Below, in pieces: positions 2,315 to 55,754 of a stretch of DNA of 64,000 nucleotides (within the stretch, counting starts at the first letter, position 1; every line of letters begins with the position of its first letter). The notes under the pieces are model-generated. The model was not told the origin of the DNA. It ran no database searches and worked only from the letters and a program-made list of their open reading frames with translations. The stretch comes from Pseudomonas mediterranea CFBP 5447 (GTDB lineage Bacteria; Pseudomonadota; Gammaproteobacteria; Pseudomonadales; Pseudomonadaceae). The DNA is taken from NCBI RefSeq assembly GCF_000774145.1, contig NZ_KN322983.1:558001-622000 (forward strand), read 5' to 3'. The translations under genes and the position numbers were made by a program.

Positions 2315-2683
2315 CTAGGGAGCAGCTTTTTGAGGCTCCATGTCATCCAGCGCTCGGTTTGCCAGTAATGAACCCAGTTCGACCAATTGCTGAATCCCTA
2401 ACGCCACATGTCGTCGAGAACCTTCCAGCTCAAACGCCAGGTCACTGACCATTGCATTGGCCGAGGCGAGGGTTTCGCTGAGAGTGGTCAACACCGATTC
2501 CGTGTTGATACCCGGAACCACTGAAAAGACCTGCCTGTCCTGGGTGTCGGGTTTACTTGGGTTGGATGGGGATAAATGTACATTCAGCGCCCGATCGGCG
2601 GCTTCGCGAAGCTTTTTTGTATCGAGAGAGGTGTAGGCGGAAAGGTTTTCAGCCTTTGGGGGATTGGGGGTTACCTTGACCAT
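2315..2683 (-). CDS. DUF6124-type small protein (paralogue of the gene at 55425)
   Basis: A 122-residue protein of unknown function. It begins MVKVTPNPPK; the variable middle is polar, and the C-terminal half is a conserved helical region with LSETLASANAM, then DLAFELEGSRRHVALG, IQQLVELG and LLANRALD. That block is nearly identical to residues about 63-105 of the gene at 55425, so the two are paralogues. No signal peptide or membrane segment is seen. The ATG at 2683 is chosen because AGGAG lies 7 bases upstream and the paralogue starts with the equivalent MFKVTPNPPE; longer in-frame reading would run through the structured leader. The family assignment (DUF6124, common in Pseudomonas) is from memory of its signature. 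Confidence 0.85.
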   Translation of the reverse strand: MVKVTPNPPKAENLSAYTSLDTKKLREAADRALNVHLSPSNPSKPDTQDRQVFSVVPGINTESVLTTLSETLASANAMVSDLAFELEGSRRHVALGIQQLVELGSLLANRALDDMEPQKAAP

Positions 2684-2913
2684 GGTGAAGCTCCTGACTT
2701 GGAAGTGGCGCTCATTCCCCCCGTGACCAAACGAGGGTGGTGGGCGGTACGCAGGTTGGTCAACCGGGAAGTCAGGCACCCGGCGCACTCGAAAGTGCCC
2801 CGCGCACAGCCCACCGCAAAGCATACCGACAAAAGTGTCGCCATGCTGAGGTTGGCGCGTATGCGCCTGACATTGGACAGGTGACCAAACCTGATCGCTG
2901 AATTTGCAGCGAC
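2684..2913 (-). ncRNA. Candidate structured 5' leader RNA, copy 1 (SD-sequestering pseudoknot)
   Basis: Reading 5' to 3' on the minus strand: hairpin P1 TCGCTG/CAGCGA (2912-2895); segment a, TTTGGTCAC (2889-2881); GGTGGGC (2815-2809), which pairs with GCCCACC (2745-2739); hairpin GCACT-TTCG-AGTGC (2798-2785); hairpin P4 CCGGG/CCCGG (2783-2764) with loop TGCCTGACTT; TGACCAA (about 2762-2756), complementary to a and to segment b TTTGGTCAC (2731-2723). The P4 loop CCTGACTT is exactly complementary to AAGTCAGG (2700-2693), which overlaps the Shine-Dalgarno site. Copy 2 at 55198 has the same layout with compensatory differences in nearly every helix. The pairing is seen in the sequence; its regulatory role and any ligand are inferred. 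Confidence 0.75.
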
Positions 2914-2919
2914 CCACAA

Positions 2920-2949
2920 AGCCTATCTTCGCGCCTTCCGAACCGGCAA
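2920..2949 (-). promoter_or_regulatory. Possible sigma-70 promoter of DUF6124 gene, copy 1
   Basis: TTGCCG (2949-2944) and TAGGCT (2925-2920) are separated by 18 bases. The -10 match is weak (3 of 6). It is listed because it aligns with a better candidate at the paralogous locus (55166-55194), and in both cases the predicted transcription start falls at the 5' arm of hairpin P1. Confidence 0.35.
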
Positions 2950-20138: not shown

Positions 20139-20630
20139 GGAAATAAACCTCGTCGCATCGTCGGGTGTGGAAGATTCCTGCTCCTGCCGATCCGCCAGTC
20201 ATTGGCGAAGAAGGCTGCTCGCTGGCCAGGGGGCCGGGCATACAAGTCGGTTCAGGCGGGGAGGCGACGGGATGAACGATGGGCTCGAGGGGAAAGTGAG
20301 CAGGTAGAGGCGGACTGCGGGCGCATTCGGGCGTCGTGGGCCCTTGTACGAACTCAGAGTGATGCCGGGTTACCTAGTTACGCTTCCGTCCCTCGGGACA
20401 ACTTCGTTCCAGTCGCAACCTCGTCAAACACACCTTGTGGGCAGTACAGACACGAATCGGCTTGCGGGGTAGGTGCAAGCGGCGACCCGAAGGCCCTTGC
20501 CAGGGCCCCTGATTAGCGGGAGCGAGGCCATCATGCCTTCGGTTTTTTGGCTCGTCAAACGTTTTGTAGTGCTTTTTTTCAAGCACTACATCTTTGGTCT
20601 AATACGACTCATCAGTCAGTTTTTGGTGCT
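20139..20630. other. Upstream region of aceA
   Basis: About 490 bases with no convincing gene. It must contain the aceA promoter. The only strong structure is the inverted repeat at 20565-20590. A 70-codon frame in the region (20374-20586, minus strand) has no ribosome site and no recognisable product. Confidence 0.6.
20565..20590. repeat. Perfect inverted repeat TGTAGTGCTT / AAGCACTACA
   Basis: A 10-bp perfect stem around TTTTTC, about 425 bases upstream of aceA and 40 bases beyond the stop codon of the secretin-N-domain gene. It may be an operator for a dimeric regulator or an RNA hairpin ending the upstream transcript; there is no T tract to favour the second. Confidence 0.5.
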
Positions 20631-48235: not shown

Positions 48236-48525
48236 AGCCAGGTGTTGACCTTGTCATGCTGGATCGACAGTTCGACGAAGGCCGGGTAGTCGATGGCCTT
48301 GGCCCAGTCGGGTGCTTGCAAGCCTCGGGCCTGGACATCTTCGGCCAGTGCGAACAGCTTCAGGCCGGCGGACTGTAACCAGGCAAACGGCGCGGTGTCG
48401 GGTTGCAAGGCGTAAGTCGCGTCGCCGCACAACAGCAGCGCATCCTCGCCTCCCAGGACCCGCAGGCAACTGGCGAGGCGGTCATCGCCAAAAGGTGAAT
48501 GGGACAACACATGCAAAGTGGACAT
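48232..48525 (-). CDS. tusB: Sulfur relay protein TusB (DsrH family)
   Basis: A 97-residue subunit of the TusBCD hexamer. The sequence MSTLHVLSHSPFGDDRLASC and LQPDTAPFAWLQ fits DsrH proteins; the C-terminus ends in the usual KVNTWL. Its start shares the last base of the tusC stop. Confidence 0.9.
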   Translation of the reverse strand: MSTLHVLSHSPFGDDRLASCLRVLGGEDALLLCGDATYALQPDTAPFAWLQSAGLKLFALAEDVQARGLQAPDWAKAIDYPAFVELSIQHDKVNTWL

Positions 48526-53685: not shown

Positions 53686-54896
53686 TCACAAGTACTTTTT
53701 GATGTTGCGATTTTTTTGGGCCGGGCCCACCTGATGTCCCGTTTCGTGATTAAAAGCCCCTAAATGACTTCCGTCGCTTGCTCGATAAGCTTCCAGTTCC
53801 CCGTGTCTGGAGTCCCACTCGTAGATTGTCCTGCCTTTAAGATCAGTCCATCTCTCTCTTAACCCGGCTCCTGCTTGTTTTGGTGTTTTCTTTTTTGCCG
53901 TCTTGAGATTTGGAAAACCCGTGATTTCTTCGGTTTCTGGGGCCGAATAGTAATCGTGGTCAGCGTTACCTGCTCGTCTTACAGAGACGACTACATAAAC
54001 AGGGCGAACCCCCGAGTCTGCCGGAAACACCAGAATGAAATCTCTGTACTCCGGCGGATAGATCGGATCAACGATGATGCTGTCGGCCATCGGCGTCGGC
54101 GGATAAATCCAGATAGGAGGGGCCTGCGGTGCCGCTTCCAGGGCAGGGATGCCCAAGGTGTCGGACGGATCGACGGCTGGCGTCCAGATCAGCTCGATGC
54201 CGTCGCCCAAGTCAGCGACGTAGTGCTCGGCGCGAGGAACCAGGTGAACGACGTCGACCATTTCCCAATCGCGGTTCTGGCCGGTATAGAAACCATAGCC
54301 CTTGAGGCTGCCATCGGCCTGCTGCTCGATTTGCAGGCGCATGCGGCTGCGGGCCTGCTTCAAGTTGTGTAACTGTTCTTCGGAGTAAAGGGCGCTATCG
54401 CCCAGGCTGGAAGGCCAGAGCAAGGCAACCATGCCGGTTAACAGACCCGTGACGACGGAGCCACTGACTGCTGCCCCGGTGCCGCGGTTAACGCGGTTAT
54501 CGCGCCGGCGCCAATCTGCTTGAGGGGCACAGTCCCCGATGCGTCAGCCCGTCTGCCGCCGAGCCAGACCAGGTCGCCGTACTGCCTGACCAAGTCAGCC
54601 GGCACATAGCCGTTGGGGTTGCTGTAATCAATGACACCGTCGGGCAACTTGCCGCTCTTGGCGAATACGCTGCCGTTTATGGGCAGTAGCGTTTTATCGA
54701 CCTTGGTCCAGCGTTCCTTTTCATAGGCGGCCTGCCGGTCAAGCATGGCTTCGTACTTCAATTGTCCGGCTTCACGCTCGGCCAATTCGCTGGGCGTCAT
54801 GTCCCGATAGGTGACGTAGTGCCCATCACCGCCGGGCGGGTTCTTGACTTGGGGGATGTCTTTTTGACGTGTCACGGAGGGGCAGATCTCGTCCAA
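53686..54896 (-). pseudogene. S-type pyocin/colicin E3-like rRNase bacteriocin, frameshifted
   Basis: Two overlapping frames make one bacteriocin. The 5' part (54896-54438) is the N-terminal region (QKDIPQVKNPPGGDGHYVTY). The 3' part (open from upstream of ATG 54432) has the pyocin translocation-type domain, ALLWPSSLGDSALYSEEQL, then an E3 16S rRNase domain ending RNIKKYL. A one-base loss near 54455-54480 would explain the split; the frames read RGTGAAVSGSVVTGL once joined. Numbered in the 248-residue 3' part, the E3 catalytic residues are all present and equally spaced: Asp207, His210, Glu214, Arg242. Even joined (about 400 residues) it lacks a large receptor-binding domain. TTG 54896 or GTG 54875 could start it. 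Sequencing error or programmed shift remain possible. Confidence 0.8.
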
Positions 54897-55165
54897 TCAA
54901 TGCGGGAGAGACACTAACCCAGGGACCGAGGCTGGAGCTGTAGGGACTTTTTTGTATTAGTTGTTACGTCTTCCTCAGGCTTTGTAGGAAAAATAAATGG
55001 ATGTGTGACCAACGTCTTTCAGAACGCACTTTTTGATTGATGTGGTTGCATTCGTTTACTGCGCCCGAGTGCGACGATCAGTGTGTTTATTGAGCTGTTG
55101 GGCTCTGCTGGATCGAGCTACATCGTCTTGCGCCACCGCCTACAACTACGCCAGAATCCGCCGGC
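54897..55165. other. Gap upstream of the bacteriocin, before the DUF6124 promoter
   Basis: About 270 bases between the divergent bacteriocin and DUF6124 leader. No gene, LexA box or repeat was recognised; the 54940-55030 part is AT-rich and may hold the bacteriocin promoter. Confidence 0.5.
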
Positions 55166-55194
55166 TTGTGCGCTTGGGAAGCGGCCTCTATCGT
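55166..55194 (+). promoter_or_regulatory. Probable sigma-70 promoter of DUF6124 gene, copy 2
   Basis: TTGTGC (55166-55171) and TATCGT (55189-55194) are separated by 17 bases. Transcription would begin about 55200-55202, inside the 5' arm of hairpin P1. Confidence 0.5.
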
Positions 55195-55197
55195 TTG

Positions 55198-55424
55198 CCG
55201 ATCACTGACGAATCAGTGATCGGGTTTGGTAGCCCGGGTTTTCGGTGCACAGCGTCACCTCCTGCAAGTGCAATCATGCGCTTCGCTTTTTGGTGGCCAT
55301 GCGCAGGGCTTCTTCGGAGGCGCCGGTTCCGATACCCGGTCTACCAACCTTCGTATGGCCACCGCCCTTCGTTTGGTAGCGTGAGAGTGATGGCTCCTTT
55401 TCAAAATGTATCGGAGCTTTATCT
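55198..55424 (+). ncRNA. Candidate structured 5' leader RNA, copy 2 (SD-sequestering pseudoknot)
   Basis: Order of elements: P1 CCGATCACTGA/TCAGTGATCGG (55198-55223); segment a TTTGGTAGC (55225-55233); GGTGGCCAT (55292-55300) pairing with ATGGCCACC (55355-55363); hairpin GCTTC-TTCG-GAGGC (55308-55321); hairpin P4 CCGG/CCGG (55323-55339) with loop TTCCGATAC; CTACCAA (55341-55347), complementary to a and to segment b TTTGGTAGC (55372-55380). Loop bases TCCGATAC (55328-55335) are exactly complementary to GTATCGGA (55408-55415), which covers the Shine-Dalgarno site CGGAG. Same order and similar spacing as the copy at 2684-2913, but different helix sequences with pairing kept. The pairings are visible; function is inferred. 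Confidence 0.78.
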
Positions 55425-55754
55425 ATGTTCAAAGTAACTCCCAACCCGCCAGAAGCCGACACCTCAACCTCGTACGACAAGGCTGCCGATCGTGCCCTCG
55501 ACTACTACCTGAAACCCAAACCGACCGAGGCCGACTCGACATCCGATCAACTCTTTACTGTCGTTAACGGCATCGACACTGAAGTCCTGCTTGCCAATCT
55601 CAGCGAAACATTGGCCTCGGCCAATGCCATGACCAGTGATTTGGCATTCGAACTGGACGGCTCCAGACGGCACGTGGCCCTGGGTATTCAGCAACTGATT
55701 GAACTGGGCGCATTGCTGGCAAACCGGGCGCTGGATAACGTCGACCCGCGTTAG
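55425..55754 (+). CDS. DUF6124-type small protein (paralogue of the gene at 2315)
   Basis: A 109-residue soluble protein of unknown function. It begins MFKVTPNPPEADTSTS and ends with the conserved helical block NLSETLASANAMTSDLAFEL, GSRRHVALGIQQLIELGALL and ANRALD. The middle is shorter than in the paralogue. The ATG has CGGAG 9 bases upstream, inside the predicted pseudoknot. It stands alone between a bacteriocin locus and a CAP-protein gene; nothing in its surroundings gives a role. Confidence 0.87.
   Translation: MFKVTPNPPEADTSTSYDKAADRALDYYLKPKPTEADSTSDQLFTVVNGIDTEVLLANLSETLASANAMTSDLAFELDGSRRHVALGIQQLIELGALLANRALDNVDPR

What the first reader, a model, noticed from the sequence alone, without database searches (positions are those of the whole stretch)
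55323..55415. Hairpin loop exactly complementary to the Shine-Dalgarno region in both leaders
At 55198 the P4 loop TCCGATAC (55328-55335) pairs with GTATCGGA (55408-55415), overlapping CGGAG before the ATG. In the other copy the loop CCTGACTT pairs with AAGTCAGG (2700-2693), overlapping CAGGAG. All 8 positions pair in both although the sequences differ at several positions. This is strong evidence for a loop-to-ribosome-site pseudoknot that blocks translation until something opens it (ligand, protein, temperature or an antisense RNA).
Basis: partly seen in the sequence, partly recalled or inferred. Interest (0 to 1): 0.93.

Follow-up and report, generated by a model that had tools for sequence, protein, structure and literature searches.

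The report
Private-code C4 antisense switches, 29 copies
Both leaders hold a C4-type antisense RNA, a kind known from phage P1, whose loop matches the ribosome-binding site of the small gene that follows and is predicted to block its translation; the same genome holds 29 such units, most with their own matching code.

Summary
The element is a C4 antisense RNA (Rfam RF01695), preceded by its c4-a1b1 target element (RF03163); both score above the curated cut-offs. In phage P1, C4 carries two antisense boxes: b' pairs with b2 at the ribosome site of icd, a' with a2 just behind C4.

What is new is the setting. This genome, probably a Pseudomonas, has 29 C4 units and 28 genes of function-unknown family DUF6124. 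All four pairings (a'-a2, b'-b2, a'-a1, b'-b1) beat each of 10,000 label permutations. Of 812 non-cognate pairs none matches both boxes at 7 or more pairs; 20 of 29 cognate pairs do. C4 occurs in 138 of 149 genomes of the genus but in 11 of 228 others sampled across the class. A C4 followed the IsrK-like element in 18 of 18 loci scanned (of 53 found). The mechanism (antisense block of translation, upstream copy as decoy) is inferred; no expression data were available, and cis and trans action cannot be separated here.

The parts
55137..55162 (+). Shared upstream box TGCCTACAACTRCGCCAGAATCCGCC (1 mismatch here); function unknown, possibly an operator
   Evidence: 19 matches in the genome (<=3 mismatches), 0 in the reversed control; 17 lie upstream of C4 units. 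Not among the matches: the copy at 2.7 kb.
55166..55194 (+). Putative promoter TTGTGC-17-TATCGT
   Evidence: TTGNNN-16/18-TATCGT or TATAGT stands upstream in 14 of 29 units (after reading by eye); the consensus scan found no sigma-70 site, so this is inference.
55188..55240 (+). c4-a1b1 element (RF03163), upstream copy of the C4 target
   Evidence: 55.1 bits, cut-off 46.7.
55226..55232 (+). a1 box TTGGTAG
   Evidence: 7 of 7 complementary to a'.
55286..55369 (+). C4 antisense RNA (RF01695); mature 5' end predicted at GG 55292
   Evidence: 69.5 bits, cut-off 45.
55328..55335 (+). b' box, P3 loop TCCGATAC
   Evidence: 8 of 8 complementary to b2.
55341..55347 (+). a' box CTACCAA, 3' linker of C4
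   Evidence: 7 of 7 complementary to a1 and a2.
55373..55379 (+). a2 box TTGGTAG just behind C4
   Evidence: same place as a2 of P1.
55408..55415 (+). b2 box GTATCGGA overlapping the Shine-Dalgarno sequence
55425..55754 (+). Target gene, DUF6124 protein, 109 aa
   Evidence: PF19619, E 7.4e-32; model with two long helices and one shorter helix.
2874..2926 (-). c4-a1b1 element of the second copy
   Evidence: 51 bits, cut-off 46.7.
2882..2888 (-). a1 box TTGGTCA of the second copy
2866..2871 (-). b1 box GTCAGG of the second copy
2733..2821 (-). C4 antisense RNA of the second copy
   Evidence: 65.9 bits, cut-off 45.
2769..2776 (-). b' box, P3 loop CCTGACTT
   Evidence: 8 of 8 complementary to b2.
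2756..2762 (-). a' box TGACCAA
   Evidence: 7 of 7 complementary to a1 and a2.
2724..2730 (-). a2 box TTGGTCA
2693..2700 (-). b2 box AAGTCAGG overlapping the Shine-Dalgarno sequence
2315..2683 (-). Target gene, DUF6124 protein, 122 aa
   Evidence: PF19619, E 8.1e-30.

Best explanation
Each leader is a C4 antisense RNA whose P3 loop (b') and 3' linker (a') are complementary to the ribosome site (b2) and to a box just behind C4 (a2) of its own DUF6124 gene, and C4 pairing there is predicted to block ribosome binding and keep the gene off. Shown from sequence: the C4 fold, the boxes, their joint change, and the upstream a1/b1 copy. Inferred: one transcript likely runs from a promoter upstream of a1b1 through C4 into the gene; C4 is likely cut out by RNase P at the conserved GG, as in phage P1, and then acts as an antisense RNA; while still attached it could form the same pairs in cis as a pseudoknot. 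The a1/b1 copy likely works as a decoy that competes for C4 and relieves the block. Because the boxes differ from unit to unit, most of the 29 C4 RNAs of this genome are predicted to silence only their own gene.
For: Rfam C4 and c4-a1b1 above cut-off in both leaders. P1 record AF234172 annotates the same order a1, b1, C4, a2, b2, gene, with b2 (GTTAGTGA) in front of icd and a2 (TTGACAG) right behind C4. All four pairings beat 10,000 permutations in this genome (n=28) and in a genus sample (n=47, de-duplicated). Of 29 units, 29 have a'-a2 of 6 or more and 26 have b'-b2 of 6 or more; no non-cognate pair of 812 reaches 7 in both boxes, 20 of 29 cognate pairs do. Outside the genus, 13 of 16 loci have b' matches of 7 or more and 15 of 16 have a' matches of 7 or more; P1 has both (wider search stretch, no permutation test). 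In 39 units of two relatives, 35 have b' and 38 have a' matches of 6 or more. At matched sites both sides change together: L029/L178, L030/L174, L022/L185. The C4 scaffold covaries: 16 of 21 predicted pairs have double changes. A copy split by an IS110-type transposase gene still matches over 10 nt 1.39 kb away.
Against: No expression, processing or reporter data here. Three of 29 units have under 6 contiguous Watson-Crick b'-b2 pairs (L032, L032b, L035), as have 7 of 54 scored genus units (one, L111, probably through a wrongly picked start) and 4 of 39 units of two relatives (L181, L198, L195, L183; three of these reach 10-11 with G-U pairs). An energy version of the a'-a2 test was weak (333 of 10,000 permutations as good). 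The b1 box of the window copy at 55 kb is weak. Permutations ignore relatedness of the copies. Cis and trans action are not separated.
Confidence: 0.82

Rival explanations
1. A purely cis-acting leader: the loop likely folds back on the ribosome site of the same molecule as a pseudoknot, and a ligand, protein or temperature opens it.
For: Loop and site lie 72 nt (first copy) and 68 nt (second copy) apart on one predicted transcript; the pairing is cognate in most units.
Against: The fold is C4, which in P1 is processed and acts as antisense RNA. No Rfam riboswitch or thermometer match in the window at the curated cut-offs. The loop letters vary from unit to unit, unlike a ligand pocket. A second target copy (a1/b1) upstream is not needed for a sensor.
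Confidence: 0.25
2. IsrK-like switch: the upstream a1b1 RNA is likely released as a short RNA and activates the gene in trans by pairing with the C4 part.
For: In 18 of 18 scanned loci with an IsrK-like pattern (18 of 53 found) a C4 lies just downstream on the same strand, 17 of 18 with RF01394 above cut-off; 4 of 16 out-of-genus C4 loci also have RF01394 above cut-off directly upstream. In Gifsy-1, readthrough mRNA is inactive and short IsrK activates it in trans (PMC4825925, abstract and section 21). b'-b1 and a'-a1 covary.
Against: A terminator-like hairpin between a1b1 and C4 was found in only 9 of 29 units (shuffles 3.8). The window copy tested scores below the IsrK cut-off (30.9 of 50). 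Gifsy-1 itself was not examined.
Confidence: 0.35
3. The units are remnants of prophages and the pairing is only inherited, without present function.
For: C4 is a phage immunity RNA; some genus copies precede a Bro-N antirepressor-like gene. Among 72 flanking reading frames there are two CI-like repressor matches.
Against: The loop stretches of the 29 units are all different while mostly staying matched; matched changes at the same site in relatives; of 72 flanking reading frames (picked from 130) the families shown (25 of 70 Pfam, 25 of 42 PHROG) are largely metabolic, transport and regulatory, with no named virion family; DUF6124 copy number follows C4 copy number, Spearman 0.87 with capped counts.
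Confidence: 0.05

Closest known systems
C4 antisense RNA of phages P1 and P7 (Rfam RF01695)
   Same: Fold, order a1-b1-C4-a2-b2-gene, b2 at the ribosome site, a2 right behind C4 (P1 sequence seen, P7 not).
   Different: Chromosomal, 29 copies, mostly one private code each, DUF6124 as target in place of icd-ant.
c4-a1b1 (Rfam RF03163)
   Same: Upstream target element found in front of both C4 RNAs.
   Different: b1 is weak in the copy at 55 kb.
IsrK sRNA of Gifsy-1 (RF01394; PMC4825925: abstract, section 21 and passages read)
   Same: RF01394 elements sit directly before C4 in 17 of 18 loci scanned.
   Different: The window element tested scores below its cut-off; terminator-like hairpin in a minority of units. 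The parts read describe the regulation without naming C4.
Acinetobacter baumannii Group 1 sRNAs (PMC5320573: section 16 and passages read)
   Same: A large set of C4-like RNAs in one genome (21) with a variable specificity loop.
   Different: Targets of those RNAs were not shown in the parts read; here most units carry their own matched target.
P4 CI RNA with seqA/seqC (seen here only in a passage of PMC4825925)
   Same: An antisense RNA with complementary sites upstream and downstream of itself.
   Different: Acts by premature transcription termination.

Membership tests
C4 antisense RNA (RF01695) | Covariance-model score above the curated cut-off | tested here: met
   69.5 and 65.9 bits, cut-off 45.
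C4 antisense RNA (RF01695) | Long P1 stem closing two hairpins, supported by covariation | tested here: met
   16 of 21 consensus pairs have double changes among 29 copies. RNAalifold did not draw P3; the Rfam alignment does.
C4 antisense RNA (RF01695) | b' pairs with b2 at the ribosome site, a' with a2 behind C4 | tested here: met
   P1 coordinates.
C4 antisense RNA (RF01695) | Second target pair a1/b1 upstream | tested here: met
   RF03163 in both leaders; a1 7 of 7 in both, b1 clear at 2.87 kb and weak at 55.24 kb.
C4 antisense RNA (RF01695) | Cut from a longer transcript by RNase P | not testable with these tools
   Only the conserved GG at the predicted 5' end was seen (first G in 29 of 29, second in 28 of 29; pair table).
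C4 antisense RNA (RF01695) | Represses translation of the downstream gene | not testable with these tools
   Inferred from pairing alone.
IsrK (RF01394) | Score above the curated cut-off | tested here: not met
   30.9 bits at 55201-55291, cut-off 50; 10 matches in the genome, all below the cut-off.
Riboswitch or RNA thermometer leader | Match to a known class at the curated cut-off | tested here: not met
   One search lists only SrbA, C4 and c4-a1b1.
Type I toxin-antitoxin | Small hydrophobic toxin with antisense RNA from the opposite strand (definition recalled) | tested here: not met
   C4 lies on the same strand as the gene. DUF6124 is modelled as helices without a fold match at E<=0.001; its toxicity was not tested.

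The most novel reading that the evidence does not exclude
This genus has turned a phage immunity RNA into a chromosomal set of about 30 mutually insulated antisense switches: one scaffold and, for most copies, one shared upstream box, but a private two-box code per unit, each silencing its own DUF6124-type gene, with the upstream a1/b1 copy as a built-in anti-antisense. IsrK and C4 would then be two halves of one widespread switch.
Probability: 0.55. Interest if true: 0.85.

Novelty: new variant of a known kind. Interest (0 to 1): 0.62.

Why it matters
The loop-to-ribosome-site pairing itself is the known b'-b2 pairing of C4. If the wider reading holds, nature has evolved some 29 largely orthogonal antisense-target pairs on one scaffold in one chromosome, a ready set for studying how RNA specificity diverges and for building insulated translational switches. 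It gives a function-unknown protein family (DUF6124), found in the class sample only in the own genome, a regulatory context. It also joins two literatures, C4 and IsrK, into one testable system. No paper held in the library contains 'DUF6124'; the only paper that holds both 'isrK' and 'C4 antisense' lists them next to each other in a table. Most subscription literature is not in that library.

Tried and rejected
Riboswitch or thermosensor leader: no Rfam match at cut-off besides C4 elements and SrbA. Prophage remnant: families shown for 72 flanking reading frames are largely ordinary chromosomal ones, with two CI-like repressor and a few AAA/Abi defence-like matches. Mobile cargo: DUF6124 found in 1 phage record, at its edge, and in no plasmid record. 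Function of DUF6124: model of two long helices, mean pLDDT 80.7, no PDB match at E<=0.001 by fold and best E 0.076 by sequence; led nowhere. Four DUF6124 genes without C4 (L049-L052) as trans targets of other C4 RNAs: among the four best C4 listed for each, none matches both boxes at 7 or more. Terminator between a1b1 and C4 as in IsrK: 9 of 29 against 3.8 expected, so not general. Sigma-70 scan: no site found. Energy-based a'-a2 test with loose stretches was weak (333 of 10,000); the contiguous-pair test with tighter stretches was strong. Both are reported.

Rows dropped before counts: L038 (transposase gene behind C4; included); six genus loci without an automatic start (L059, L083, L087, L097, L109, L112); L111 and repeated C4 sequences from the genus set; L128. 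Start codons of ten own loci were entered by hand. The genus loci are the best-listed C4 of 60 of the 138 genomes with a match, so they favour high-scoring copies. Of 53 IsrK-pattern loci, 18 were scanned, chosen by me. The 72 flanking frames were picked by hand from 130.

Full report
What is there. The window leaders at 55.2-55.4 kb (+) and 2.9-2.7 kb (-) each hold a c4-a1b1 element (RF03163) and a C4 antisense RNA (RF01695), both above Rfam cut-offs, followed by a DUF6124 gene (PF19619).

What the pairing is. The annotated P1 record (AF234172) gives a1 TTGACAG and b1 GTTAGTGC upstream, C4 at 48343-48419, a2 TTGACAG right behind it and b2 GTTAGTGA in front of icd, noted as 'repression of icd ant translation'. 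The C4 of P1 is complementary to the downstream pair over 8 (b') and 7 (a') bases. The window units have the same order.

How many. The genome has 29 C4 matches, 28 DUF6124 matches and 30 a1b1 matches, 15 of them over the cut-off. By their coordinates, 24 of the 29 C4 units precede DUF6124, one of them (L038) across an IS110-type transposase gene; 5 precede other small genes (L024, L027, L031, L033, L039). Four DUF6124 genes lack C4 (L049-L052); L049 and L050 keep an a1b1 element.

Joint change. Longest contiguous Watson-Crick match, cognate against permuted, n=28 own units: b'-b2 7.68 against 4.26; a'-a2 7.04 against 4.16; a'-a1 7.18 against 5.07; b'-b1 6.29 against 4.17; none of 10,000 permutations reached any of them. 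In 47 de-duplicated units from other genomes of the genus the same four tests also gave 0 of 10,000. Duplex energies for b'-b2: -16.06 against -9.37 kcal/mol, 0 of 10,000, own target ranked first in 17 of 28; the energy test for a'-a2 was weak, 333 of 10,000. With 29 units, 26 have b'-b2 of 6 or more and 29 have a'-a2 of 6 or more; none of 812 non-cognate pairs reaches 7 in both (6 reach 6 in both), 20 of 29 cognate pairs reach 7 in both. The permutations do not correct for relatedness. Matched genomic sites in two relatives help there: L022/L185 changes a' and a2 together, L030/L174 changes b' and b2, and L029/L178 changes all boxes while staying self-complementary. Of 39 units in those two relatives 35 have b' and 38 have a' matches of 6 or more; L181, L198 and L183 have 5 Watson-Crick pairs but 10-11 with G-U, L195 has 5 and 6.

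Spread. Across the class C4 is in 12 of 229 genomes, own included, and DUF6124 in 1 of 229, the own genome. In 16 of the 17 out-of-genus loci fetched, b' matches of 7 or more occur in 13 and a' matches of 7 or more in 15 (target stretch of about 90 nt, no permutation test). In the genus sample 47 of 54 units scored have b'-b2 of 6 or more.

Targets. In the genus sample the first gene behind C4 is, in the examples typed for Pfam and PHROGs, DUF6124, DUF3077, a Bro-N antirepressor-like protein, a leader of about 52 aa without family, or another small protein without family. In 17 of the 20 leader-type loci listed (L075, an apparently broken Bro-N gene, not counted) the longest next frame overlaps the end of the leader by 4 bases, the same overlap as icd and ant1 in P1 (48688-48691). 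Translational coupling is therefore likely there.

The upstream element. IsrK (RF01394) is described as an RNA that is silent as part of its long mRNA and activates it in trans as a short RNA (PMC4825925, abstract and section 21). Of 53 loci with an IsrK-like pattern I scanned 18: all 18 have a C4 just downstream on the same strand and 17 score as isrK above cut-off. In the 16 out-of-genus C4 loci, 4 have isrK above cut-off directly upstream. A published Xylella table lists the two next to each other (PMC12189769, one passage). IsrK is thus very likely the a1b1 element of C4-type operons. In the present genome only 9 of 29 units show a terminator-like hairpin before C4 (shuffles 3.8), so release of a short a1b1 RNA is unproven here.

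Upstream control. A 26-nt box occurs 19 times in the genome, 0 times in the reversed control, 17 times in front of C4 units, including the unit at 55 kb but not the one at 2.7 kb. TTGNNN-16/18-TATCGT or TATAGT stands upstream in 14 of 29 units, and the looser TTGNNN-16/18-TANNNT in 28 of 29 (no control run), though the sigma-70 scan did not flag the window copy.

Verdict. It is the b'-b2 pairing of a known RNA family, so the local claim is not new. Not seen in the searched library (listings; only PMC2864571, PMC5320573, PMC12197685, PMC4825925 and PMC12189769 were opened, in the parts named or as passages) is the chromosomal expansion with private codes and DUF6124 targets, and an account of the C4-IsrK link. 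Mechanism inferred: antisense block of translation, with a decoy upstream.

Noticed in passing
window 53686-54432 (-): An S-type pyocin / cytotoxic-domain bacteriocin-like gene lies near the C4-DUF6124 unit.
   Followed up: no
window 20298-20513 (-): SrbA sRNA, 103.1 bits.
   Followed up: no
L038: An IS110-type transposase gene sits directly behind C4 and splits the unit; the ribosome site 1.39 kb away still matches the loop over 10 nt.
   Followed up: yes
L055-L114: 17 of 20 listed leader ORFs of about 52-57 aa overlap the next frame by 4 bases, as icd and ant1 do in P1.
   Followed up: partly
L225-L271: A C4 directly behind the IsrK-like element in all 18 loci scanned (of 53 found).
   Followed up: partly
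window 55137-55162: A 26-nt upstream box shared by 17 of 29 C4 units, possibly a common operator; two further matches lie elsewhere (L210, L223).
   Followed up: partly
L049, L050, L051: DUF6124 genes without C4; L049 and L050 keep an a1b1 element.
   Followed up: partly
L243: A long CRISPR array lies close to a C4 locus.
   Followed up: no
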